A DNA stretch of 64,000 nucleotides from Acidiphilium acidophilum (GCF_033842475.1 NZ_JAWXYB010000018.1:2091501-2155500), one strand, 5' to 3'; positions 46 through 12,614 are shown, counted from the stretch's first letter. The notes: generated by a model from the letters alone, not told the origin. Numbers and translations are program-made.

Positions 46-825
46 TCAGTAGCCCGACCCGTTGTAGCCACCCGTCATCGGGCCGCCATAGCCGCTGACC
101 GGGCCACCGCTGGTGGTGAACGGCCCGCCCTTGGGGAAGTTCATGTCCATGCTGCCCATGTTCATCGGGCCGGAGCTGCCGGACATCGGACCGGTGCTGC
201 CGCCGAACGGACCGCTCGATCCGCTCATCGGGCCGGGCCCGTTGGACGTGCCGTAATACGGCGCCGGATAAGGCTGCGGCGCGTAGTATTGCGGCGGCGG
301 GGGCGGGTAATAGCCCGGCGCCGGCTGCATCTGCGGAGCGGGCTGCATTTGCGGCTGCTGCGGCATCGGAGGCTGCTGATAGGCAACCGGCGGCGGCGCG
401 TAGTATTGCGGCGGCGGCGGGGCATAACCCGGCTGCGCGCCGGTTCCCTGATAGCCGCCGGTCATCGGTCCGCCATAGCCGCTCATCGGGCCGGTGCTGC
501 CGGACATCGGGCCGCCCTTCGGGAAGTTCATGTCCATGCTGCCCATGTCCATCGGGCCGGTGCTGCCGGACATCGGACCGGTGCTGCCGCCATAGGTGCC
601 GCTGTTGCCCATCATGGGACCCGGGCCGTTCTGGGCCGGGGCGCTCGGGTAGCCGTAGTAATACGGCGGCGGCGCGTAGGTCGGCGGTGCGGCTGCCGGC
701 GTGGTGGCCGCCGGGGTCGATTTGGCCGGTGCGCCTTGTGCCAGGGCCGACCCCGCCATCAGGCCCATTGCGGCGATACAGCCGATCCCGGTGGTCAGGA
801 TCAATCGTCTCTTACTCTCTTGCAC
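46..825 (-). CDS. Secreted Gly/Pro/Met/Tyr-rich repeat protein
   Basis: This 259-residue protein is of unknown function. It starts with GTG, preceded by AAGGAG at seven bases. Residues 1-29 form a signal peptide with a probable cut after SALA. The rest is low complexity: Pro/Tyr stretches (PPPPPQYYAPQP-like) alternate with GPMSGS-type repeats. A block at residues 66-126 recurs at 195-254, including the shared core MGSMDMNFPKGGP, so the protein arose by internal duplication. It is the last gene of the minus-strand series that begins at sqr, 182 bases after the related Tyr/Pro-rich gene. Its composition recalls sulfur globule envelope proteins, which are secreted and rich in Gly, Pro and Tyr, but no homology is shown. 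The reading frame is solid; the role is a guess. Confidence 0.75.
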   Translation of the reverse strand: MQESKRRLILTTGIGCIAAMGLMAGSALAQGAPAKSTPAATTPAAAPPTYAPPPYYYGYPSAPAQNGPGPMMGNSGTYGGSTGPMSGSTGPMDMGSMDMNFPKGGPMSGSTGPMSGYGGPMTGGYQGTGAQPGYAPPPPQYYAPPPVAYQQPPMPQQPQMQPAPQMQPAPGYYPPPPPQYYAPQPYPAPYYGTSNGPGPMSGSSGPFGGSTGPMSGSSGPMNMGSMDMNFPKGGPFTTSGGPVSGYGGPMTGGYNGSGY

Positions 826-1007
826 GTCACTCTCCTTCGGTGTTTCGATTCACTTGCATCGCTTTTCGGCAGAGGCGGAGGAATTCCGCATCTGCGATGG
901 TCAGGCCGTGGCGGCAGCGGGGGCGAACCCTCGCTGTGCCGGACCGCATTCGGCAAACGGGGCATGACAAGCCCCCCAACGACCCGTTGCCGGCGGGATC
1001 ACCAGGT

Positions 1008-2543
1008 TCATTTCTGGACCTGCTGAGACGGGGCCATCCAGAAGCCGGGGGATGGCGAATTCGATGGCGCGGAGGCACCAGCCGGTGCCTGCGGCGCGGA
1101 GCCGGTGCCGTAGGAGGCCCAGACCGTGTTCGGACGGGTCTTGAGCGGCGTGGCACCAGTTGAGGCCGGACTTGCCGCGACGGGTGCTGCCGGTGCCAAA
1201 GCCGGAATCGGGGCCGGGGCGGCCGTGTTTTCTGCCCTCGCGAACGGCGCGTAGGGAGTGACGTAGGCCCGCGGTACATAGGCCTGCGGGACGTAGCCGC
1301 CGATGGTTGCTCCATATTGATACATCACCGGGCGCGACCAGACCTGGGGCGCTGGATATCGATATTGCGGTGCGCGATAGGCCGGTTCCGCCTGCGGATA
1401 TCCGTAAGGGGCGGCATAGGGCCTCGGCTGAACATTCACCGGCCAGCGCGCGACCGGATAGGCCACCGGCATTGCCGGGTAATAGTATTGCGGTGGCGCT
1501 GCGTAGCGCGGCTGCGCGTACCAGACCCGTTGCGCGTAATAGGGCTGCGGCTGGGGCCGATAATAGGCCTGCGGCGCCATGACCGCGTTGTTCTGCGGCA
1601 TCGCGTAGCCGTAAGGCGGGGGATAATAGCCGGGGGGCGCCATCATCGGGCGCATCTGCGGCTGTTGCGGCGGTTGGGTCTGTTGCGGCTGAGCCGTTTT
1701 CTGCTGCGCGGGTTTGCCGGGATCGGACTTCGCCCCGTTCGGCGCAGCTGCGGCGTGCTGCGGTGCCGTCTGGTTATTCTGTTGCGGCGCGTTCTGCTGC
1801 GGTCGGGCCATCATCGGCTGCGCGCCATAGGCAGGGTAGCCATAGGGCAGCGGATAATAGCCGGGCGGAGCCCAGCCATAGGGCATCTGCGGATAATAGG
1901 GGTGGGGATAATAGCCCGGCTGCATCGGCTGTTGCGGTTGCGGCGCGGGATGCGGCTGTGCAGCCTGCTGTTGCGGCTGAGGCTTCGCTGCCTGCTGGGG
2001 CTGGGGCTGGGGCTGGGGCTGGGGCTGCTGCGGTTGTGGCTGCGCCATTTGCGGCGGATAGCCGTAGGGCATCGGATAATAGGGACGCGGATAATAGCCC
2101 GGCTGCATCGGCATCGGGTGTGGCGGCGCCGCCATCGGGTGTTGCTGCTCTGCCTGGGGCTGCGGCTTGGCCATCATCGGCTGGGGCCGCTGCTGCATCT
2201 GCTGAGGCTGCGGCGGGTAGCCATACGGCATCGGGCGGTCGTAGCCCGGCGGCGGATAATAGCCCTGTTGCGGCGCGACCATCGGGTATTGCGGCCGCAT
2301 GTATCCGTAAGGCGGCATCGCGACGTAACCGGGTGCCGGATAATAGCCCTGAGCCGGGGCCATCCGGGGCGCGGTCGCCTGCGGCTGCGCGACGAACGGG
2401 CCGGGTGGCGGCGGCACCTGCTGGGTCGGCGGCGTGGCAGCGGCGGGTGCCGCGGCAATCGGCCCCGCATAGGCCGCGCCGAGCGCGAGATAGGCGACCC
2501 CGCCGATCAGGCTCCATTTCAACAGACTGATTTTACGTTTCAT
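1008..2543 (-). CDS. Secreted Pro/Tyr/Gln-rich repeat protein
   Basis: This 511-residue exported protein is of unknown function. The start at 2543 is chosen because GGAGGAG lies eight bases upstream, whereas the frame opens 11 codons earlier without a good site. The N-terminus MKRKISLLKW plus a hydrophobic stretch is a signal peptide or anchor. The mature part is almost entirely repeats such as PGYYP, PYGYP and MQPGYYPHPYYP, with Gln-rich linkers. It has no recognisable enzymatic domain. It begins 36 bases after the RND pump gene and is probably cotranscribed with it. The regular Pro/Tyr pattern suggests an extended structural or surface protein. Together with the sulfide oxidation genes upstream, it could be a sulfur-globule-like or sulfur-contact protein (inference). 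Confidence 0.75.
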   Translation of the reverse strand: MKRKISLLKWSLIGGVAYLALGAAYAGPIAAAPAAATPPTQQVPPPPGPFVAQPQATAPRMAPAQGYYPAPGYVAMPPYGYMRPQYPMVAPQQGYYPPPGYDRPMPYGYPPQPQQMQQRPQPMMAKPQPQAEQQHPMAAPPHPMPMQPGYYPRPYYPMPYGYPPQMAQPQPQQPQPQPQPQPQQAAKPQPQQQAAQPHPAPQPQQPMQPGYYPHPYYPQMPYGWAPPGYYPLPYGYPAYGAQPMMARPQQNAPQQNNQTAPQHAAAAPNGAKSDPGKPAQQKTAQPQQTQPPQQPQMRPMMAPPGYYPPPYGYAMPQNNAVMAPQAYYRPQPQPYYAQRVWYAQPRYAAPPQYYYPAMPVAYPVARWPVNVQPRPYAAPYGYPQAEPAYRAPQYRYPAPQVWSRPVMYQYGATIGGYVPQAYVPRAYVTPYAPFARAENTAAPAPIPALAPAAPVAASPASTGATPLKTRPNTVWASYGTGSAPQAPAGASAPSNSPSPGFWMAPSQQVQK

Positions 2544-2579
2544 TTCGATTTCTCCTCCACCTTTCTCGTGTCGCATCGT

Positions 2580-5500
2580 CTAACCTTCGTATGTGCCGTA
2601 GGGCACCGTCGCGGGTCCGGCCGGGACTGGCTGTGCCGGGGGCGCCTCGGGCTCGCCTTCATCATCGGCCTGACGCCGCATTTCGTGCGGCAGCAGGTAA
2701 TTGCCCGCAATGTTGATGCCGAGCGGCACCACGATCAGGGTCAGCAAGGTCGAGACCAAGGTGCCGAACAGCAGCGACAGGCCCATGCCCTGGAAAATCG
2801 GCGAGCTGATGATGAACATCGAGCCGATCATCAGCACCGCCGCGGTGATCAGGATCGGGCGGGTGCGCGCCGCGCAGGCGGCAACCACGGCCTCGCGCAC
2901 GGTCGCCCCCTCGATCACCGCGTGCTGGGCGAAATCGACCAGCAGGATCGAGTTGCGCACGATGATGCCCATGAGCGCGATGAAGCCGATCATCGAGGTT
3001 GCAGTGAAGGGCGCGCCGAACAGCCAGTGGCCGGGAACGATCCCGAGCATGGTCAGGAAGATCGGCACCATGATCACCACCGGCATCACGAGGCCACGGA
3101 ATTCAGCGGCGAGCACCATGTAGATCAGGAAGAACGCGACACCGAAGGCGATTCCCATGTCGAGGAAGGTCTCGAACGTCACGGTCCAGCTGCCGGTCCA
3201 GTAACAGCCCACCTTGTTCACGTCGGTCGGGGGGGCCGTGTAGGTGCAGGTGGGGTATTTCGCCTTCTGCAGCATGGTATCGACTTCGAGCATCCCGTAG
3301 ATCGGGGCGGCGAGCTGGCCGATCGAGGCACCGGTGACGTAGGCGACCGAGCGGAGATCGCGTTGCAGCAGGGTCGGTTCCTCATGGCTGAGCTTGGGTG
3401 TGCCGACCTCGCTGAGCGGGACCGCGCTGCCCTGATCGGTCGAGACCGGGAGTTGCAGCAGCTTGCCGGCTTCGGCGCGGGTGCCCATCGGCACGCTCAG
3501 CTTGACCGGCACGGTTTTGAACGTGCCGCCCTGGGGCAGCGAGGCGATGGTTTCATCGTTCAGGGCGAGTTCGAGGCTGCGCTTGATCGAGCGATCATCG
3601 ACCCCGGCGATCGCGGCCTTGAGCTGGTCGATCTTGAAGTGCCAGACCGGGTAGGCGTATTCGATCGAACTATCGACCTCGCCGATGCTGCGCGCCTTGC
3701 CGAAATCATGCGCGAGCACGGTCGCGAATTTGTCGCGGGCCTGCTGGTCCGGGCCGTACACCACGGCGACCACGCTGCGACGGACCGGCGGGCCGGGCGG
3801 CGATTCCACCACCTGAACCGATTTGATCGGCGTCTTGAGCGTTTTGGCCAGCGCATCGAGATTGGCCACGGCGCGCAGGGCAATGGCGTGGCTCTGCATC
3901 GGGCGGCGGTCGTTCAGCTCGACATGGATCATCGCCTGCCACGGCTTGTCGCGCAGGTAGTAGTGCCGCACCATGCCGTTGAACGAAAACGGCTCGGGCG
4001 CGCCGACATAGAGCTGGCTGTTCTTGACGTAGCGCATCCGGTCGATCCGCTCGATCATCGCACGGGCGGTATTATAGGTCTCCTCGACCGGCGTGCCCGC
4101 GCGCATGCTCAGCACCACGTCGAAATGATTGACGTTGTCCTCCGGCAGCATTGTCATGATGACGCCATCGAAATAGAACAGCGCGCCGACCCCGGCGAGG
4201 CCCATCACGATAAGCCCGATCAGCGCCCCGCGCCGCCACGCTTTGGCCAGCAACCCGTCCATCATCCATTTGTAAAAGCCGGCCAGTTTGCGGCTCTGGC
4301 GGTGCTCGCGCTCGCCCGCGCGGCGCATCCGCGCCAAGTTGGGCGGAATTTTCTGGATCAGATAGGGGGTAAACACGAAGGCGGCGAACAGCGAGAAGAT
4401 CATCGCGGCCGATCCGAGGATCGGGATCGCGATCATGTACGGCCCCATCATGCCGCGCACGAAGGCCATCGGCAGCAGGGCGACCACGACGGTGAGGGTC
4501 GCCACGATGGTCGGGTTGCCGACTTCGCGCACGGCGTCGATCGTGATCGCCGCCGTGACGCGCCCGGCCTCCAGCCAGCGGCGATAGATGTTCTCGACCA
4601 CCACGATCGCGTCGTCGACCAGGATGGCGATGGTCAGGATCAACGCGAACAGGCTGACCCGGTTGAGGGTGTAGCCGAGGTGCTGGGCGAGGAAGATCGT
4701 GAACAGGATCACCACCGGGATGATCAGCAGGGTCACGAAGGCCGGTCGCCAGCCGAGGACCAGGAACACCAGGAAGGCGACCAGCGAGGTTTCCAGAACC
4801 AGCTTGAACAGCAGCTCGTTGACCTTGCCTTCAGCCGATTTGCCCTCGTTGCGGCTGACCGTGACATGCACGTCGTTCGGGATGATCGTGCCTTCGAAAC
4901 TCTTGAGGTTCGCGAGGATCTGATGCGCCATGACCACGGTGTTCGCGCCCGATTTTTTCGCGATCGCGATGGTCACCGCCGGGGCCCCGTTCACCGCCGT
5001 GTGGTGGACGCCGCCGGGGGCGAAGAACTGCACCATCTTGTTGGGCGCGCCGGCACCGAACGTGACCTTGGCGACCTGATCGAGATAGACCGGCGAGCCG
5101 TGATAGACGCCGACCACGAGGTTTTCGATCTCCTGCGGATTGGAGAGGAACTTGCCGGTATAGACCTTGAGATAATGATTGGACTGGGTGATGTGCCCGA
5201 CCTCGGCCGACAAATTCGCGGTGCGAATGACCTCGGCGATTTTGGTCAGGGGAATATCGTAGGCGTTGAGCCGGCTCGGCAGCACGTGGATCTGCACTTC
5301 CTCGCGCTGGCCGTGGACGGTGAATCCGTCCGCCGTGCCGGGGATCGTCATCAGTTCCTGCAGCACCACCTGCCCGATATCGTCGAGCCGGGCCGGGCCC
5401 ATCGTTTTGGACCAGAGCGTGACGTTGAAGAACGGAACGCTGTTCACCCCCTTCGGCACCACCAGCGGCTGCGAGGCGCCCGCCGGCATGGCGTTGAGAT

Positions 5501-6020
5501 GGCTGAAAATCTTGGTGTAGAGGCGCTGCAACGCGTCGGTCGCGTGCTGACCGACCGCGAACCTCACCGTGACCATCGAGCGGCCCGGCTCGGACACGCC
5601 ATAGACATGTCGGACGCCCTGAAGGCTGGTCATCAGCAGTTCGAGCGGATCGGTCACCAGCCGCTCGACCTGGTTGGGCGAGGCGCCGGGATAGCTCACG
5701 AAGATATCGACGAAAGGCACCGAAATCTGCGGATTCTGCTGATACGGGATCTGAAAGAAGCCGATCAGGCCGAAGAAGAAAGCCATGATGTAGAGCAGCG
5801 GCGTGACCGGCGAGCGGACGAACATCCGCGCGATGCCACCGGCGAGGCCGGGCGATTTCGGCGTTTGCGGGGACGCACCGCGCGGGCCGTGGCGCTCGCC
5901 GCGTGGATCGCCGGTGGTGTCCCGCGCGGCGGGTGGCGATTGCGGGTTCACGCCCGCACCGCCGGCATTGCGGCCATCGTCCGGCGCCGCAGGCGGCGGT
6001 GGGCCGGGGTAATCATCCAC
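2580..6020 (-). CDS. RND efflux transporter, inner-membrane pump subunit
   Basis: This 1146-residue AcrB-like proton-driven pump has two copies of the RND fold. About 65 extra residues, rich in Pro, Gly and Asp, precede TM1 (RSPVTPLLYIMAFFFG). The TM4 proton relay DDAIVVVENIYRR is intact. The TM10 position that is Lys in AcrB (AKNAIL) is Arg here (VRNSIL), a variant common in this subgroup. A periplasmic loop near residues 930-950 has two Cys. The start is GTG at 6018-6020, overlapping the adaptor gene stop by eight bases, which implies translational coupling. No TolC-type outer membrane factor is encoded nearby. Its place after sqr and the YeeE genes suggests export of a sulfur compound or a linked stress product (inference); substrates cannot be read from sequence. 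Confidence 0.93.
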   Translation of the reverse strand: MDDYPGPPPPAAPDDGRNAGGAGVNPQSPPAARDTTGDPRGERHGPRGASPQTPKSPGLAGGIARMFVRSPVTPLLYIMAFFFGLIGFFQIPYQQNPQISVPFVDIFVSYPGASPNQVERLVTDPLELLMTSLQGVRHVYGVSEPGRSMVTVRFAVGQHATDALQRLYTKIFSHLNAMPAGASQPLVVPKGVNSVPFFNVTLWSKTMGPARLDDIGQVVLQELMTIPGTADGFTVHGQREEVQIHVLPSRLNAYDIPLTKIAEVIRTANLSAEVGHITQSNHYLKVYTGKFLSNPQEIENLVVGVYHGSPVYLDQVAKVTFGAGAPNKMVQFFAPGGVHHTAVNGAPAVTIAIAKKSGANTVVMAHQILANLKSFEGTIIPNDVHVTVSRNEGKSAEGKVNELLFKLVLETSLVAFLVFLVLGWRPAFVTLLIIPVVILFTIFLAQHLGYTLNRVSLFALILTIAILVDDAIVVVENIYRRWLEAGRVTAAITIDAVREVGNPTIVATLTVVVALLPMAFVRGMMGPYMIAIPILGSAAMIFSLFAAFVFTPYLIQKIPPNLARMRRAGEREHRQSRKLAGFYKWMMDGLLAKAWRRGALIGLIVMGLAGVGALFYFDGVIMTMLPEDNVNHFDVVLSMRAGTPVEETYNTARAMIERIDRMRYVKNSQLYVGAPEPFSFNGMVRHYYLRDKPWQAMIHVELNDRRPMQSHAIALRAVANLDALAKTLKTPIKSVQVVESPPGPPVRRSVVAVVYGPDQQARDKFATVLAHDFGKARSIGEVDSSIEYAYPVWHFKIDQLKAAIAGVDDRSIKRSLELALNDETIASLPQGGTFKTVPVKLSVPMGTRAEAGKLLQLPVSTDQGSAVPLSEVGTPKLSHEEPTLLQRDLRSVAYVTGASIGQLAAPIYGMLEVDTMLQKAKYPTCTYTAPPTDVNKVGCYWTGSWTVTFETFLDMGIAFGVAFFLIYMVLAAEFRGLVMPVVIMVPIFLTMLGIVPGHWLFGAPFTATSMIGFIALMGIIVRNSILLVDFAQHAVIEGATVREAVVAACAARTRPILITAAVLMIGSMFIISSPIFQGMGLSLLFGTLVSTLLTLIVVPLGINIAGNYLLPHEMRRQADDEGEPEAPPAQPVPAGPATVPYGTYEG

Positions 6021-7221
6021 GGGAGGACGCGCCTGAACGGTCGGCCACGGTGTGCGGCGTGTGGCCCGGCTCCCAGCCGCTCGCCGCGTGGGCCGGCGGA
6101 TGCAGCACGACCTGATCGCCCGATTTCAGCCCGGCCAGCACCACGACCATGCCGTGCGGCAGGGTTTCACCGAGGCGCAGAACATGGATTTCGGTCTTGT
6201 GCGTGTGCGGGTTCACCACCAGCACGCACGGCAGGTAATATCCCTTGATCAGCGCGGTTTCCGGCACCGCGACCTGCGGGCTCTGGCTGACCCCATCCGC
6301 GCCGTTCCCCGGCAGGGTGATGGTCGCGTACATGCCGGAAGCGACCGGCGCACCGGGCGGCAGCATGATCTTGATCGGCACGGTATGGGTGGACGGAGCG
6401 GCGAGCGGATAGATCTGATAGATGATTCCGGGCAGCTCGGTCCGCCCGATCGTGATCGGCACGGGTTGGCCGAGGCGCATGCTGGGAACCAGATCCTCGG
6501 GCACATCCACCTTGACCAGCATCCGCGATACATCGGCGAGGACCAGCAGCGGCGAACCGGGCTGCACCGTGCCGCCGACCTCGACCTGTTTGGACATGAT
6601 CACGCCATCGAACGGGGCGTAGGTATCGGTATCGGACAGCGCACTCTGCGCGTTCGCGACCCTGGCCTGGGCGACGCGGATCTGCTGTTCGGCCAGCAGA
6701 AGCTCGTCTTTCGACTGCACCGTATCCGCATAGCGGTCGAGGCCCGGATCCTGGAGTCCGGCCATCTGCGCGAACGGCCCGGTGAAGTAATGATTGAACA
6801 GGCCGGACGGGCCGATCGACATCGGGCTCGCAACATTGTTCGAGCGCGGCGAGTAGAGCTGGCGGGTATACTGGATGTTCGCGGTCTGCCAGCCGATCTG
6901 CGCCGAGAGCAGTTCGGCCTGGGCTTCCTGAAGATTGGCCATCTGCGCGGAATTGTTGACCGCGACGACGACCTGCCCGGCGGTGACGCGGGTGCCGATC
7001 GAGCCGAGCACGAAATTGACCCGGCCAGAAACCAGCGAGACCGCATCGATGGTTCGCAGCGGCACGACGACGCCGCCGAGGCTGATCTGATTGGCCGATT
7101 TCGCCGAGTTCGGTGCAATGGTCGAGATCGGCGCACCGGCGGCATGGGCGGGAACTCCGGTGCCGACCAGCACAACCCCGCCGAGGGTCAGCAGAAGCGC
7201 ACGCAGGGTCGATCTATGCAT
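6013..7221 (-). CDS. RND periplasmic adaptor (HlyD/membrane fusion protein family)
   Basis: This 402-residue periplasmic adaptor would link the RND pump to an outer membrane channel. The start at 7221 (MHRSTLRALLLTLGG) gives a clean signal peptide and has GGAG upstream; the frame is open 12 codons further. The first biotinyl-lipoyl half is VSGRVNFVLGSIGTRVTAGQ. It is followed by a helical hairpin (roughly residues 110-200) and the second lipoyl half (YAPFDGVIMSKQVEVGGTVQ). Then come beta-barrel and membrane-proximal domains (VKVDVPEDLVPSMRLGQPV). The hairpin includes an atypical Pro/Gly/Asn-rich insert. Its stop overlaps the pump start. Confidence 0.9.
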   Translation of the reverse strand: MHRSTLRALLLTLGGVVLVGTGVPAHAAGAPISTIAPNSAKSANQISLGGVVVPLRTIDAVSLVSGRVNFVLGSIGTRVTAGQVVVAVNNSAQMANLQEAQAELLSAQIGWQTANIQYTRQLYSPRSNNVASPMSIGPSGLFNHYFTGPFAQMAGLQDPGLDRYADTVQSKDELLLAEQQIRVAQARVANAQSALSDTDTYAPFDGVIMSKQVEVGGTVQPGSPLLVLADVSRMLVKVDVPEDLVPSMRLGQPVPITIGRTELPGIIYQIYPLAAPSTHTVPIKIMLPPGAPVASGMYATITLPGNGADGVSQSPQVAVPETALIKGYYLPCVLVVNPHTHKTEIHVLRLGETLPHGMVVVLAGLKSGDQVVLHPPAHAASGWEPGHTPHTVADRSGASSRG

Positions 7222-7341
7222 TTCCGGTCTCCGCCCTGTTTTCGATTTGCCTGCCATTTCGCTTCATTCCGCCCCGTCCGCTTTTGGTTCGTTTCGATAC
7301 TTCGTGATGCGCGGGTCTGACCGCGCCCTCTGCCTCGCCGC

Positions 7342-7788
7342 CTACGCCGACACGCCAACCCGCGCTGCCGCCGCCGATTTCGACTTGTTGAACAGCCGGT
7401 AGCCCCAGATGCCGATGATCATCGGCACGATGAACAGACCGACCGGCCCCGGATGGAGCACCAGATCCGCCACCGCCGGGCCGGGACACAGGCCCATCAA
7501 TCCCCAGCCGAGGCCGAACATCGCGGCCCCGCCGACCAGACGCAGGTTGATCCCGTGGCGCGGCAGCACCGCAAACGCATCGGTGAACAAGGGTTTTCTC
7601 AATGACCGCGCCGTGAGGAACCCCAACGCCATCACCGCTGCTCCCGCGCCCATGACCACGGCGACGCTGGGGTCCCAGCGGGGGCCGATCGACAGGAAAT
7701 TCAGCAGCTTCGCCGGATCGCCCATTCCGGAAATCAACAGGCCGGCGCTGAACAATACACCCGCGACCAAGGCGATGAGCACTCGCAT
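7342..7788 (-). CDS. YeeE/YedE-type transporter half (DUF6691)
   Basis: This 148-residue membrane protein has four or five hydrophobic segments and the family motif GLCPGPAV near residue 100. YeeE/YedE proteins carry sulfur compounds such as thiosulfate across the inner membrane using conserved Cys residues. In many bacteria they are split into two small genes, as here. The start is fixed by the TGATG junction with the upstream half: stop and start share one base. The frame remains open upstream but there runs antisense-like through the partner gene. It lies 120 bases before the RND adaptor gene. Confidence 0.88.
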   Translation of the reverse strand: MRVLIALVAGVLFSAGLLISGMGDPAKLLNFLSIGPRWDPSVAVVMGAGAAVMALGFLTARSLRKPLFTDAFAVLPRHGINLRLVGGAAMFGLGWGLMGLCPGPAVADLVLHPGPVGLFIVPMIIGIWGYRLFNKSKSAAAARVGVSA

Positions 7789-8228
7789 CAGAACATCCCG
7801 CCGATGACGCGGGTAAGAAAGACCGCGACGAAGGCGACGCCCATGAACGTCGCGGTGGCGGCGATGGAGCGCGGTGACAGTCGCGACAGGCCGCAGATAC
7901 CGTGCCCGGACCCGCACCCGCCGGCCAGCGCGGCACCGAGCCCGACCAGCAATCCCGCAGGAACCAGCAGCAGGCGCGGCCCCGAAAGTTGGAATGACGG
8001 GTCGATCCCGAGCACCCGGGCGATCAGGCCGGTCAGCAACATTCCCGCGATGAACGCAAGTTTCCAGTCCCGCTCCTTCGGCTCGATCAGGCCGCCGAGG
8101 ACACCGCTGACGCCCGCGACCCTGCCGTTGCCGATCCACAGGGTTGCGGCGCCGAGGCCGATCAGCGCGCCGCCGAAGAGGGAGAAAACCGGGGTGAAAC
8201 TGGTCGCGGGAGGAACGGGAAGCAGCAT
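7788..8228 (-). CDS. YeeE/YedE-type transporter half
   Basis: This 146-residue membrane protein has the signature GGCGSGHGICGLSRLS around residues 103-118, typical of YeeE/YedE (sulf_transp) proteins, where the Cys residues handle the sulfur substrate. It pairs with the gene that overlaps its stop codon. Similar pairs sit beside BigR/SqrR-regulated sulfide genes in other proteobacteria. It starts 65 bases after the ancestral stop of sqr. The IS5-family element in sqr lies between it and the sqr promoter, so its expression may now be weakened or driven from the element. Confidence 0.9.
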   Translation of the reverse strand: MLLPVPPATSFTPVFSLFGGALIGLGAATLWIGNGRVAGVSGVLGGLIEPKERDWKLAFIAGMLLTGLIARVLGIDPSFQLSGPRLLLVPAGLLVGLGAALAGGCGSGHGICGLSRLSPRSIAATATFMGVAFVAVFLTRVIGGMF

Positions 8229-8293
8229 CTTGAACTCTTTCGTCTATCAGAATTTTGGCGAACCGGGCCGGATTGAAGGTCCGGCCCGTGCCA

Positions 8294-8375
8294 TTATTCG
8301 GCGGCGTGGCGGGTCTGGGTCGCTTTCTGCTTCAACTTGTGGATTTTCATGGTCTTCATCATGAATTTCTCATAG
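8294..8375 (-). pseudogene. sqr: 3' remnant of sqr, cut off by an IS5-family insertion
   Basis: Read on the minus strand, this stretch continues the sqr frame after the insertion: KFMMKTMKIHKLKQK and so on to HAAE, then TAA at 8294-8296. Joined to the main fragment it rebuilds a 433-residue protein whose C-terminus matches the pattern of the Acidithiobacillus enzyme (SEPFYEK followed by KMMGI and RLK). This tail forms the amphipathic membrane-binding helix in characterised relatives. Confidence 0.85.
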
Positions 8376-9303
8376 TGTCCATCCGGGAACACCTTGAAAC
8401 TTTGGAGTCACTTGTGATTCCATAGCGGCGGCCCGATTCGCAGGAGCAGCCTGATGTGGACGAACGAGAACCGCGCCCGGTATGATCGCAGCAAGCTGCG
8501 CTATCCGAGCGATTTGACGGATGACGAGTGGGCGATCATCGGCCCGCTGATCCCGCCCGCCAAGCGTGGCGGCAACAAGCGTACGGTGAATGAGCGGCAG
8601 GTGATCAACGGGCTGATGTTCATCCTGAGTACCGGTTGCCAATGGGCGTCGCTGCCGAAAGATCTGCCTCCACGGAGCACGGTGAACGACTATTTTCGCC
8701 GTTGGAACGAGGATGGCACGCTCGATCGCATTCATCATGCGCTGTACGTCAGATGTCGCGAACAGGTTGACCGCGCGGCCAGTCCGACGGCTGCGATCAT
8801 TGACAGCCAGAGCGTCAAGAGCGCGGAAAAAGGGGGGGTCATATCGATCCGTCAGGGTTCGATGCGGGCAAGAAGATCAACGGCAAGAAGCGCCATGTCC
8901 TGGTAGACACGCAAGGCCTGCTGCTTTGCGCCATCGTCCACGCCGCCGACATCCAGGATCGGGACGGCGGCGTGATGCTGATGGGAACGCTGTTCGGTCT
9001 GTTTCCCTTTCTGCTCAAGCTTTATGCCGACGGTGGCTATCAAGGGCCGAAATTCCAGGAAGGGCTGGGCCGCGTGTGCGCTCAGATCAATGTCGAGATC
9101 GTCAAGCGCTCCGATATCGGAAAGTTCGTCGTTGTGCCCAAGCGCTGGATCGTTGAGCGAACCATCGGCTGGCTCAACCGTTGTCGCCGGTTGGCCAAGG
9201 ATTGGGAATGCCTCAACCAAAACGGACTTGCATTTCTACGCTGGGCATCCATCCGGCTGATGGTACGAAAACTCTGTAAGGAAACAAAATGATCCCGGAT
9301 GGA
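8376..9303 (+). mobile_element. IS5-family insertion sequence, about 928 bp
   Basis: Near-terminal inverted repeats GTCCATCCGGGA (8377-8388) and TCCCGGATGGAC (9293-9304) bound one transposase. A 7-base direct repeat CTCATAG stands at 8369-8375 and 9304-9310. The exact border is ambiguous by a base or more because repeat and element ends overlap. The element lies inside sqr in opposite orientation to it. Confidence 0.88.
8454..9292 (+). CDS. IS5-family transposase in two frames (probable -1 frameshift)
   Basis: The first frame (8454-8906) begins MWTNENRARYDRSKLRYPSD and carries DDEWAIIGPLIPP and the first catalytic region up to IIDSQSVKSAEKGG. The conserved continuation, HIDPSGFDAGKKINGKKRH through VDTQGLLL and YADGGYQG to the ERTIGWLNRCRRLAKDWE end motif, is in the -1 frame and stops at 9292. 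The switch point is A5G7 at 8827-8838. Several IS5 subgroups (IS427-like) express transposase by frameshifting, so this may be programmed rather than decay. The joined product would be about 280 residues. Confidence 0.85.
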
Positions 9304-10530
9304 CTCATAGACCGGCTCGCTGGTGCCGCCCTTGATTTTCCGGATGAAGTATTTCTCGAAGCCGATCTTGGCGAGATGGACCCATTTGCCGTCGGCGGAC
9401 CAGTTGACGTCGCGCGGCGGCAATTGCGGCTGGGCGACGAACACCACGCCGCCATCGCCGAAATCGGCGATGCACACGGCATTCCAGGTCGGCTTGGTGT
9501 CGGGTGCGCGGTTGCGCAGCAGCGCGCCGATATTATGCGCCGTCGCGGTGACCATCGATTCGATCATGAAACCGGTTTTCGGCACGCCGACCGGCACCGG
9601 AGTCGGCCCGATCGGCGGGATCGCGACGCAGACGCCGACCGAGAACACGTTCTGAAAGGTCGGGTTGCGCTGATACTCGTCGATCAGCACGAAGCCGCGC
9701 GGATTGACCAGCCCCTCGATGCCCTTGATCGCGGCGACACCACGGAACGGCGGCATCATCATCGAAAACTTGAAGGGCAACTCGTGGGTTTTGATCACGC
9801 TGCCATCAGTGCCGACTTCTTCGGAGACCATTTTACCGGCGGTGATTTCCTTGACCCGCGCATTGGTGATCCACTTGATGTGCCGGTTGCGCAACTCGCT
9901 TTCCAGCAGACCCTTGGTGTCGCCCACCCCATCGAGCCCGAGATGCCCGATATACGGTTCCGGGGTAACGTAGGTCATCGGCACCTTGCTGCGCAGCTTG
10001 CGCTTGCGGAGTTCGGTGTCGAGGATCAGGGCGAATTCATAGGCCGGTCCGAAGCAGGAGACGCCCTGCGCGGCACCGATGACGACCGGGCCGGGATTGC
10101 GGCACAATTCCTCGAAGCCTTCATAGGCCTGGACGGCATGCCCGGTTTCGCAAATCGAAAACGTGTGCGCGTCGGGGCCGAGGCCGGGAATTTCATCGAA
10201 CGCAAGATCAGGCCCGGTCGCGATCACGAGATAATCGTATTTGAACGCGCTGCCGTCATGCAGGGTGATGCTGTTATTGGCCGGATCGACCCGCTGCGCC
10301 GGGTGGGGGATGAAATTGATCTTTTTCTTCTTCATCACGGCAGTGAGATCGACTTCGACGTCTTTCCGGGTCCGCCATCCCACCGCCACCCAGGGGTTCG
10401 AGGGGTAGAACTGATAAGACGGGCTGCTGCCGATGACGGTTATACGATCCCCCGCCCGCAATTCGGGCACGAGTTCATAGGCCATCAAGCTTCCGCCAAG
10501 TCCGGCACCCATAACAACGATTTCAGCCAC
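9304..10530 (-). pseudogene. sqr: Sulfide:quinone oxidoreductase, 3' end replaced by IS
   Basis: This FAD enzyme oxidises sulfide to sulfur or polysulfide and passes electrons to membrane quinone. Visible features are the FAD-binding GAGLGGSLMAYE near residue 8, YDYLVIATGPD near 98, and active-site cysteines C127 (SICETG), C159 (GVSCFGPAYE) and C353 (NAVCIADFGD). They match Cys128, Cys160 and Cys356 of Acidithiobacillus ferrooxidans SQR. Native coding ends at E409. The frame then runs about 73 codons into the IS5 element, to a stop at 9082, giving a hybrid 482-residue protein without its last 24 native residues. The core is intact, so some activity is possible, but membrane binding may be harmed. 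It heads the minus-strand gene series. Confidence 0.92.
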
Positions 10531-10735: not shown

Positions 10736-11020
10736 ATGATCCACCGCAAACTTCAGTTCGCGATCCTTGCCTGTTGTTCTGATGAGGCGCTGCGGTTTAT
10801 TGATATCGCACAGACGGTTCGGTCACGGTTTGGTGATGAACACGGTTTTGCGGCGGATAGCGACATTCGTGCCCTTCTGCATGGGTTCGTGAAAGCGGGG
10901 CTCGTCGCCATGCAGACCGGTGGTTGTGGCGGGGGTGGAACCTATTCGCTGAGCGAGGAAGGTTTCGAAGAACTCGAATCATTCATGCTCGATGAGCAGT
11001 TATTCGGGTTGTTGTGCTGA
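10736..11020 (+). CDS. Small Cys-containing winged-helix-like protein
   Basis: I do not recognise a named family for this 94-residue protein. Its layout (RFIDIAQTVRSRF, ADSDIRALLHGFVKAGLVAMQ, GTYSLSEEGFEELESFM) looks like a winged helix of the PadR/ArsR type: helix-helix-recognition helix, then a wing with a Gly-rich turn. It has cysteines at C13, C14, C64 (inside GGCGGGG) and C94, the last residue. It is transcribed away from sqr and convergent with the ArsR-type gene, whose stop is 15 bases away. It could be a second thiol-based regulator of the sulfide locus (inference). Confidence 0.65.
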   Translation: MIHRKLQFAILACCSDEALRFIDIAQTVRSRFGDEHGFAADSDIRALLHGFVKAGLVAMQTGGCGGGGTYSLSEEGFEELESFMLDEQLFGLLC

Positions 11021-11035
11021 AAACCAGGGATCGAA

Positions 11036-11320
11036 CTACGATTGCTGGCAGAAATTCTTGTAGATCACCTTGACCAGTTGATGTGCCGCATCGCTGTCGA
11101 GCGAGTAATAGATGGAGCGCGATACGCGGCGGCATTTCACCACACCCTCGGCACGCAATATCTTCAATTGCTGCGACAAATGCGACTGGCGGATTTTTAT
11201 CTTCTCTTCCAGTTCGTTTACAGTGAACTCGCCATAGGTCAGGTGGCAGAGAATCATGATCCGATGGGGATTGGCCATGATGCTGAGGAAGTGCGAAACC
11301 TGACTAGCCTTTGCCATCAT
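11036..11320 (-). pseudogene. BigR/SqrR-like ArsR regulator, 3' part after ISAs1 insertion
   Basis: This is the DNA-binding body of an ArsR-family repressor: ANPHRIMILCHL, recognition helix RQSHLSQQLKILRAEGVV and wing RRVSRSIYYSL. Cysteines C25 and C91 lie exactly 66 residues apart, as in BigR (Cys42/Cys108) and SqrR (Cys41/Cys107), which form a sulfur link in response to sulfide or persulfide. A further Cys is at 63. ISAs1 inserted at the ATG at 11318-11320, removing 28 upstream codons. Those codons now lie at 12615-12699 and join in frame to give a 122-residue ancestral protein. The remaining 94 residues keep an ATG and all DNA-binding parts, so it may still work if transcribed from the element. 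Confidence 0.85.
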
Positions 11321-11329
11321 GGCGTGGAC

Positions 11330-12614
11330 CAGGGCTGTTCAACCCTCTGAACTGATGGTTCACTGGGTCCGATATGCAACAGGACGTCGGAAATTGAGGC
11401 GTCGAGCATTTTGCGGATTCCCGCCGGGATCGATCTGGGATTCGTGGGGAGGTAACCGATTCGGAGGTTACCATGGCCACGTTCACCCCGTTGCTCGACA
11501 TCCTGGCTGATGTCCCTGACCCACGCCGCGCGGAGGGCAAACTCTACAAGTTGCCCCACGTGCTTTTGTTTTCGATCCTCGCGATCGTGAGCGGCAGCGA
11601 TTCCTATCGCGGTATCGTCACGTTCATCGACACCCATCGCCGCACCCTCAACCGCAGCTTTGGTTTGAAATGGCGCCGCGCACCGTCGCATACCTCGATC
11701 CGCTACATCCTCCAGGGGCTCGATCCGATCGGGGTGGAGGCGGTCTTTCGTCGGCATGCAGCACTTCTGCACGCGGCCAACGCCAAGCCCGGTGCTGCCA
11801 GCATCGCACTGGACGGCAAGACCCTGCGCGGCAGCTTCGACAAGTTCCACGATCGAACCGCCGCTCACGTGCTCAGCGCCTTCGCCACCGACACCAAACT
11901 CGTGCTGGCGCACCTCGATATCGATGCGAAATCCAATGAGATCCCGGCAGCTCAGACACTGCTTGCCGAGCTCGGTATCGCTGAGGACGCCATCGTCACC
12001 CTCGATGCGCTGCACTGTCAAAAAAACTCTTCGAGGTCGCCCAGGACGCCAAAATCGGCCTGATCGTTCAGCTCAAGGACAATCAGCCGACCCTGAAAGC
12101 CGCGATTGAACACCTGGCCGCGACGGCCGCCTCGCACGATCGCGCCCAAAGCCGCAATCATGGCCGCAATCGCGATGAAACCCGTGCCGTCACTGTCTTC
12201 GATCCGGCCGACGCACTCGCCGACACCGATTGGCATCCCCACGTCGCCGCGATCATACAAGTGGAGCGCTCGGTCGTGACACGCAGCCCCGCAACCGGGC
12301 TGCTCCACTCGACAACGGAAACCGCCTTCTACATCGCGAACCGCCCGATCACCGCCGCTCGGGCCGGCGTGGCCATCCGCGCGCATTGGAAAATCGAAAA
12401 CACCTCGCATTACACAAGGGATGTCACTATGGGCGAAGACCGGTCGCGCATCCGAACCAACCCGGGCATCTTCGCCCGCTTACGCAGCTTCGGCTTCAAT
12501 ATCCTGATGGTCAGCAAGACTGGCACCATGAAGCAAGACCGATACCGCGCAGCGCTCGCCGGCATCCAACACCTGCTCTCACTCGTCGCTATATCAAAGC
12601 GTTGAACAGCCGTG
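11330..12614 (+). mobile_element. ISAs1-family insertion sequence, copy 1 (1285 bp)
   Basis: The ends are CAGGGCTGTTCAA (11330-11342) and TTGAACAGCCGTG (12602-12614), a 13-base inverted repeat with one mismatch. The 10-base target duplication TGGCGTGGAC is at 11320-11329 and 12615-12624. A second copy of the same length lies at 50669-51953. The element splits the ArsR-type regulator. Its transposase runs away from the remaining regulator fragment. Confidence 0.95.
11473..12605 (+). CDS. ISAs1-family transposase, two frames joined at an A7 run
   Basis: The first frame (11473-12063) begins MATFTPLLDILADVPDPRRA and includes DGKTLRGSFDK and VTLDALHCQK. At C-A7-C (12019-12027) the conserved sequence moves to the -1 frame (KKLFEVAQDAKIGLIVQLKDNQP) and continues to RAHWKIENTSHYTRDVTMGED and the end at 12605. 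The DDE-type catalytic residues are therefore spread over both frames. The same A7 and shift occur in copy 2, which points to programmed -1 frameshifting or to spread of one mutated copy. The joined protein would be about 378 residues, the usual family length. Confidence 0.88.

What the first reader, a model, noticed from the sequence alone, without database searches (positions are those of the whole stretch)
46..10530. Sulfide oxidation locus ending in two repetitive Pro/Tyr/Gly secreted proteins and an RND pump without an outer channel
Directly seen: one strand carries sqr, two YeeE/YedE halves, an adaptor, an RND pump and two exported repeat proteins, with short gaps or overlaps from the YeeE pair to the 511-residue repeat protein. 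Established: SQR makes sulfur or polysulfide, YeeE proteins move sulfur compounds, and sulfur globule proteins are secreted and rich in Gly, Pro and Tyr. Inference: the locus may form a system that exports sulfur made by SQR and wraps or binds it outside the cytoplasm. I know of no described system with this exact set.
Basis: partly seen in the sequence, partly recalled or inferred. Interest (0 to 1): 0.8.

Follow-up and report, generated by a model that had tools for sequence, protein, structure and literature searches.

The report
Sulfur-globule-type pump and coat-protein gene cluster
An Acidiphilium genome carries, next to a sulfide-oxidising enzyme, a gene cluster otherwise found mainly in globule-type sulfur oxidisers, pairing an unusual membrane pump with sulfur-globule-like coat proteins and a membrane-shaping GTPase, which suggests a dedicated machine for storing sulfur outside the cytoplasm.

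Summary
The genes are as described, with two corrections: an IS5-family element interrupts the sqr 3' end, and the cluster continues past the window's left edge (a third repeat protein, TPR protein, dynamin/EHD-like GTPase, conserved 131-residue protein). The host is an Acidiphilium. The pump belongs to an RND subfamily (45-49% identity) found in 40 of 398 Pseudomonadota genomes, nearly all of one class-level group (probably Magnetococcia). Its loci encode Pro/Gly/Tyr/Asn-rich secreted proteins downstream of the RND in 30 of 32 cases, versus 0 of 16 sqr-linked RND control loci. Where Pfam's sulfur globule protein family (PF17228) passes its cut-off, it does so only in genomes with this RND (5 of 5), in four of them 2-5 kb from it. 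All cluster adaptors, the window's included, replace the TolC-docking hairpin tip with a ~40-residue insertion. The window's repeat proteins match no family; a neighbour shows weak similarity to true globule proteins. Best explanation: an extracytoplasmic sulfur-globule assembly/loading system, here beside sqr. The link to globule loci is strong; the pump's cargo and the GTPase's role are inferred. I found no description of the whole set.

The parts
11036..11320 (-). ArsR-family regulator, BigR/SqrR-like, 94 aa; Cys25, Cys63 and Cys91, of which Cys25 and Cys91 sit where I recall BigR/SqrR carrying the sulfane-sulfur-sensing pair
   Evidence: NF040642 BigR 100 bits (cut-off 155) and NF033788 above cut-off; Cys positions; the pair itself is from memory
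9305..10530 (-). sqr, sulfide:quinone oxidoreductase of the Acidithiobacillus ferrooxidans type, lacking about the last 25 codons because of the IS insertion
   Evidence: PDB 3sz0 E=2e-141; 61-68% to SQRs of other alphaproteobacteria; paralog end compared
8377..9304 (+). IS5-family insertion sequence inside the sqr 3' end, transposase on the + strand, inverted repeats at 8377-8396 and 9285-9304
   Evidence: NF033580 122 bits, PF01609, inverted repeat I1
8290..8376 (-). cut-off 3' end of sqr (YEKFMMKTMKIHKLKQKATQTRHAAE)
   Evidence: sequence; matches the intact paralog's end
7788..8228 (-). YeeE/YedE half, sulfur-compound transporter family
   Evidence: PF04143 29.3 bits, cut-off 27; TsuA model below cut-off
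7342..7788 (-). YeeE/YedE second half (DUF6691)
   Evidence: PF20398 1e-27; stop/start overlap TGATG
6013..7257 (-). periplasmic adaptor (membrane fusion protein) with a ~40-residue insertion at the hairpin tip (residues ~134-176)
   Evidence: TIGR01730 131 bits; insertion shared with every cluster adaptor aligned and absent from 15 control adaptors
2580..6020 (-). RND (HAE-1/AcrB-type) permease, 1146 aa; Asp pair of the proton relay present (DDAIVV at 469); Arg where AcrB has Lys940
   Evidence: PF00873 4e-138; 45-49% to the cluster subfamily, ~40% to sqr-linked RNDs of relatives; tree; residues
1008..2543 (-). secreted 511-aa protein, 24% Pro, 16% Ala, 14% Gln, 11% Tyr, GYYP/YYP repeats; occupies the slot of the secreted protein that follows the RND in related loci
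   Evidence: no Pfam/NCBIfam hit; no homolog in 200 family genomes; same slot filled in 21 of 32 loci
46..825 (-). secreted 259-aa protein with GPMSG / MDMNFPKGGP / GYGGP repeats; homologous to the 171-aa protein just left of the window (genome C18 ~2090888-2091403)
   Evidence: rep259-rep171 similarity E=7e-11, z=13 against shuffles

Best explanation
The locus is an Acidiphilium version of a conserved sulfur-globule cluster whose core is adaptor + RND pump + secreted low-complexity coat proteins, accompanied in other genomes by an EHD/dynamin-like GTPase, a small conserved protein and often a ParA-type ATPase. Proposed mechanism: (1) SQR oxidises sulfide to zero-valent sulfur/polysulfide at the membrane (established for the enzyme family; shown here only by homology); (2) the YeeE pair moves a reduced-sulfur compound across the inner membrane (family-based inference); (3) the RND/adaptor, which lacks an outer-membrane channel gene beside it and the TolC-docking tip, moves sulfur or a hydrophobic partner within or into the periplasm instead of out of the cell (inference from anatomy); (4) the Sec-exported Pro/Gly/Tyr-rich proteins coat the sulfur as sulfur globule proteins do (inference from position, make-up and weak similarity); (5) the EHD/dynamin-like GTPase shapes or separates the membrane around the store (inference). 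A BigR/SqrR-like repressor would switch it on when sulfane sulfur appears (inference). In this strain the sqr copy is cut by an IS, so supply may depend on the second sqr.
For: RND subfamily at 45-49% identity in 40/398 genomes, distinct from the ~40% background. 30/32 of its loci carry secreted P/G/Y/Q/N/W-rich ORFs downstream, 21 within 200 bases, versus 0/16 sqr-linked control RND loci, 12 of which had more than 3 kb of downstream sequence. PF17228 above cut-off in 5/398 genomes, all five with this RND, in four within 2-5 kb of it, including one alphaproteobacterium. Shared adaptor-tip insertion. Window RND groups with the cluster side, 100% support. EHD-like GTPase (50/398) and 131-residue protein (41/398) share the RND's distribution: 36 genomes have all three. 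rDsrA in 27/28 cluster genomes tested versus 1/27 controls. Physical linkage to sqr, YeeE and a BigR-like regulator here. rep171 versus true SGPs z=4.0-4.6, 0/300 shuffles. A. vinosum sgpD lies next to a hydrophobic/amphiphilic exporter and rises 28-fold on sulfide (PMC10386293). Magnetotactic cocci make intracellular sulfur globules (PMC5088516, PMC6783814).
Against: The window's repeat proteins do not match PF17228 and phmmer finds no link to the related loci's secreted proteins. sqr and YeeE are not linked in the other loci. The Acidiphilium genome has no dsrA, so how stored sulfur would be consumed is unknown. Most co-occurrence comes from one clade, so the association tests are not independent. 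No data on cargo, expression or globules in this organism. The sqr copy is disrupted.
Confidence: 0.6

Rival explanations
1. Sulfide/sulfane-sulfur detoxification: under a BigR/SqrR-like repressor, SQR and YeeE remove sulfide while the RND/adaptor expels toxic polysulfide or hydrophobic products; the repeat proteins are ordinary envelope proteins with no coating role.
For: BigR-like regulator beside sqr; in relatives a different RND is linked to sqr and an ArsR-type regulator in most of the 16 loci read, and in the one read in full (L031) the set is sqr, ArsR, rhodanese, adaptor, RND, which looks like a detoxification set.
Against: The window RND is not of that sqr-linked subfamily and its adaptor lacks the channel-docking tip those adaptors keep; its own subfamily sits with sulfur globule proteins.
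Confidence: 0.2
2. Acid- or metal-stress envelope system: the RND/adaptor and Pro/Tyr/Gln-rich proteins build or harden the cell surface of an acidophile and lie near sqr by chance.
For: Pro/Gln/Tyr-rich secreted proteins also occur in envelope and adhesion roles (general knowledge); the repeat proteins are species-restricted.
Against: Same gene order in genomes of a different group that carry dsrA and PF17228 proteins; co-inherited GTPase and 131-residue protein.
Confidence: 0.12
3. Decaying acquired locus: a sulfur-globule cluster obtained by transfer, no longer working in this lineage since an IS cut sqr and the genome lacks dsrA.
For: IS in sqr; no dsrA; repeat protein absent from the other Acidiphilium species searched.
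Against: RND, adaptor, YeeE pair, repeat proteins, GTPase and 131-residue protein are all open; the left part is 95-99% conserved in a conspecific genome and the RND 99% in another Acidiphilium MAG; a second intact sqr exists.
Confidence: 0.08

Closest known systems
[quoted passage not shown] Pfam PF17228)
   Same: Sec-exported, low-complexity structural proteins; sgpD lies next to a hydrophobic/amphiphilic exporter (PMC10386293); true PF17228 members lie in four of the related loci
   Different: The window's proteins are Pro/Gln/Tyr-rich, longer, and do not match PF17228; globules have not been seen in this strain
BigR/SqrR-type sulfide-responsive sets (ArsR repressor, rhodanese, adaptor, RND beside sqr in other Acetobacteraceae)
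   Same: sqr with an ArsR-family regulator, adaptor and RND
   Different: A different RND subfamily (~40% identity), adaptor with canonical tip, no repeat proteins, divergent sqr
Tripartite RND efflux pumps (AcrB/MexB, HAE-1)
   Same: Permease family and proton-relay Asp pair, partner adaptor
   Different: No outer-membrane channel gene in the run; adaptor tip replaced by an insertion; clustered with coat-like proteins
EHD/dynamin family membrane-remodelling NTPases
   Same: Dynamin_N domain (PF00350, 4e-11); nearest solved structures EHD4/EHD2 (4e-5)
   Different: Bacterial, about 490 aa, linked or co-inherited with the sulfur-globule cluster; function untested

Membership tests
Sulfur globule protein family (PF17228) | match to the Pfam profile | tested here: not met
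   rep511, rep259 and rep171: no match up to E=10; proteins of related loci do match
Sulfur globule proteins (functional sense) | Sec signal peptide and low-complexity Gly/Pro/Tyr/Asn-rich mature chain | tested here: met
   sequence and composition
Sulfur globule proteins (functional sense) | sequence similarity to known SGPs beyond composition | tested here: inconclusive
   rep171 z 4.0-4.6 with two PF17228 members, 0/300 shuffles; rep259 and rep511 weaker; phmmer none
Sulfur globule proteins (functional sense) | present on isolated globules, induced by sulfide | not testable with these tools
   needs proteomics and expression data
SGP-linked RND cluster (as defined in this report) | RND of the 45-49% subfamily | tested here: met
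SGP-linked RND cluster (as defined in this report) | adaptor with the hairpin-tip insertion | tested here: met
SGP-linked RND cluster (as defined in this report) | secreted low-complexity protein(s) directly downstream of the RND | tested here: met
   for relatives, for the window
SGP-linked RND cluster (as defined in this report) | EHD-like GTPase and 131-residue protein in the genome | tested here: met
   both lie within ~4 kb left of the window's edge
Tripartite RND efflux pump | outer-membrane channel partner encoded nearby and adaptor tip able to dock on it | tested here: not met
   none in the gene run; canonical R..F/L......S tip absent; a channel encoded elsewhere was not excluded
BigR/SqrR repressor | curated model cut-off | tested here: not met
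   100 bits against cut-off 155
BigR/SqrR repressor | two sensing cysteines at the family's positions | tested here: inconclusive
   Cys25 and Cys91 present; no alignment with characterised members was made, positions compared from memory

The most novel reading that the evidence does not exclude
A dedicated biogenesis system for the bacterial sulfur globule as an organelle-like compartment: an RND/adaptor pair with a non-TolC tip loads sulfur into a periplasmic store coated by SGP-type proteins, an EHD/dynamin-like GTPase shapes the surrounding membrane and, in many genomes, a ParA-type ATPase positions it.
Probability: 0.3. Interest if true: 0.87.

Novelty: new variant of a known kind. Interest (0 to 1): 0.72.

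Why it matters
Sulfur globules have been studied for decades, but to my knowledge apart from small coat proteins no machinery for loading, shaping or placing them is known. A short list of co-inherited genes with a clear marker (the adaptor-tip insertion) makes the question directly testable by gene removal in cultured sulfur bacteria, and shows that the set has reached an acidophilic alphaproteobacterium, where it sits beside sqr.

Tried and rejected
(a) sqr-YeeE-RND as the conserved unit: rejected, since neither sqr nor YeeE is found near the RND in related loci and a similar sqr is in only 8/28 cluster genomes against 6/27 controls. (b) Homologs of the repeat proteins by sequence: none beyond the species, so position and make-up were used. 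(c) Grouping the window RND with the sqr-linked RNDs of Acetobacteraceae: rejected by identity, tree and adaptor tip. (d) The 131-residue protein looks SCP2-like by eye, but no Pfam or PDB match was found, so it is left unnamed. (e) The ParA-type ATPase is not in the Acidiphilium run; the genome's ParA-like hits are at most 35% identical and lie elsewhere, most on small contigs. (f) The secreted LolA-like family of related loci has no PDB match. (g) Sigma-70 promoter and terminator scans gave no more than chance, so operon structure is unresolved. (h) The names of G-handle genomes are hidden; Magnetococcus marinus MC-1 for G238 rests on its single 4,719,581-base contig and my memory.

Full report
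What is in the sequence. On the minus strand of window 46-10530 lie, in transcription order, sqr, two YeeE-type halves, an adaptor, an RND permease and two secreted repeat proteins. Joints are tight from the YeeE pair (TGATG overlap) through adaptor/RND (8-base overlap) to the 511-residue protein (36 bases); the 259-residue protein follows after 182 bases. The sqr 3' end is cut by an IS5-family element with inverted repeats at 8377-8396 and 9285-9304, removing about the last 25 codons; the genome has an intact 92% identical sqr elsewhere with none of these partners beside it. SQR is of the A. ferrooxidans type (PDB 3sz0, 2e-141). About 0.5 kb upstream lies a BigR/SqrR-like ArsR regulator (100 bits against a cut-off of 155), with cysteines at 25, 63 and 91.

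The locus is larger than the window shows. In the neighbouring DNA the same-strand run continues with a 171-residue repeat protein homologous to the 259-residue one (E=7e-11), a TPR protein, a dynamin-like GTPase (PF00350 4e-11; nearest solved structures EHD4/EHD2), a conserved 131-residue protein without any family match and a Usp-like protein. A conspecific genome keeps the part from the 259-residue protein to the Usp-like protein at 95-99%. The host is an Acidiphilium (99% identical RND in MAG STC_15).

What it is related to. Among close relatives the usual sqr neighbour is another RND (~40% identity to the window's); most of the sixteen loci read show sqr, an ArsR gene or both near it, the rest being mainly short contigs, and the one read in full also has a rhodanese and an adaptor. 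A search of 398 Pseudomonadota genomes revealed a closer subfamily, 45-49% identical, in 40 genomes, 37 of them from families outside Alphaproteobacteria; one of these genomes is a single contig of 4,719,581 bases, the size I remember for Magnetococcus marinus MC-1, so this group is probably Magnetococcia. The other members are two alphaproteobacteria (G461, G520) and the window's genome. A tree puts the window RND on this side with full support, on a long branch.

The neighbourhood is the key. In 30 of 32 such loci, secreted proteins whose mature chains are at least 40% P/G/Y/Q/N/W lie within 6.5 kb downstream of the RND, in 21 within 200 bases, against none in 16 sqr-linked control RND loci, four of which had almost no downstream sequence. 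Several look like classic sulfur globule proteins, and some match Pfam PF17228, Sulphur globule protein, well above its cut-off. Over the 398 genomes PF17228 exceeds its cut-off in five (G238, G242, G246, G257, G461); all five carry this RND, and in four the gene is 2-5 kb from it. By hypergeometric reckoning that is about 8e-6, without correction for relatedness. Literature held here records that A. vinosum sgpD also lies next to a hydrophobic/amphiphilic exporter and is induced 28-fold by sulfide (PMC10386293).

A shared derived trait ties the window to this group: every cluster adaptor aligned, the window's included, has about 40 extra residues at the hairpin tip (QYTRQ.YS....M.....MFD....P...M.G), whereas 15 control adaptors have the short tip with the R..F/L......S pattern or a variant of it. 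From general knowledge that tip docks on TolC-type channels; its replacement, with no channel gene in the run, argues that this pump does not discharge through a conventional channel.

Co-inheritance. The EHD-like GTPase (50 genomes) and the 131-residue protein (41) are distributed like the RND (40); 36 genomes have all three, although in the probable Magnetococcia the GTPase lies elsewhere in the genome. Fisher values (1e-39 to 1e-47) are inflated because most carriers form one clade, but the alphaproteobacterium G520 and the window's species carry all three, and G461 the RND and GTPase, away from that clade. rDsrA is found in 27 of 28 cluster genomes tested and 1 of 27 controls; it is missing from Acidiphilium. 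SQR itself does not track the cluster (8/28 against 6/27).

Are the repeat proteins globule proteins? Not by profile nor by phmmer. rep171 aligns with two true SGPs at z=4.0-4.6 (0 of 300 shuffles reach the score), and with rep259 at z=13. With their secretion signals, make-up and position, I judge it likely but unproven that they take the SGP role.

How it probably works. Shown: gene content, subfamily membership, adaptor insertion, company of globule proteins. Inferred: SQR makes zero-valent sulfur; the RND/adaptor moves sulfur or a hydrophobic carrier into a periplasmic store; the secreted proteins coat it; the EHD-like GTPase shapes the membrane around it; a sulfur-sensing repressor controls it. 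In this strain the adjacent sqr is cut, so the second sqr may be the source. How Acidiphilium re-uses such sulfur without dsrA is open.

Novelty. Sulfur globules and SGPs are known, and an SGP gene beside an exporter has been mentioned. Searches of the held papers found none joining sulfur globule proteins with RND and SQR, or with Magnetococcales, and none joining sulfur globules with a dynamin-like protein in this sense; subscription journals are largely missing from that library. I therefore call it a new variant of a known kind, with a more radical reading (an organelle-building system) left open.

Noticed in passing
window 8377-9304: IS5-family element interrupting the sqr 3' end, with 20-base inverted repeats; an intact 92% identical sqr exists elsewhere in the genome.
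   Followed up: yes
window 11473-12605: A second transposase-like gene in broken frames just upstream of the ArsR-like regulator.
   Followed up: no
window 10736-11020: Small 94-residue ORF on the + strand between sqr and the ArsR-like gene, no convincing family.
   Followed up: partly
L144:8751-10214 and L145:7956-9518 (G331, G496): Two complete genomes outside the main clade carry the EHD-like GTPase without this RND subfamily and without dsrA, though both have an sqr; the GTPase's role may be wider.
   Followed up: partly
L163:8587-8985 (G611): An alphaproteobacterium with the 131-residue protein but not the RND subfamily or the GTPase.
   Followed up: partly
L093, L104 and similar loci: Many cluster loci also carry an ABC-2 type transporter pair upstream, a conserved secreted LolA-like ~210-aa protein and a membrane coiled-coil protein; no PDB match for the LolA-like protein.
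   Followed up: partly
L023, L025, L031, L034 and similar loci: In other Acetobacteraceae a different RND (~40% identity) sits near sqr and an ArsR-type regulator; in L031 a rhodanese and an adaptor lie between regulator and RND.
   Followed up: partly
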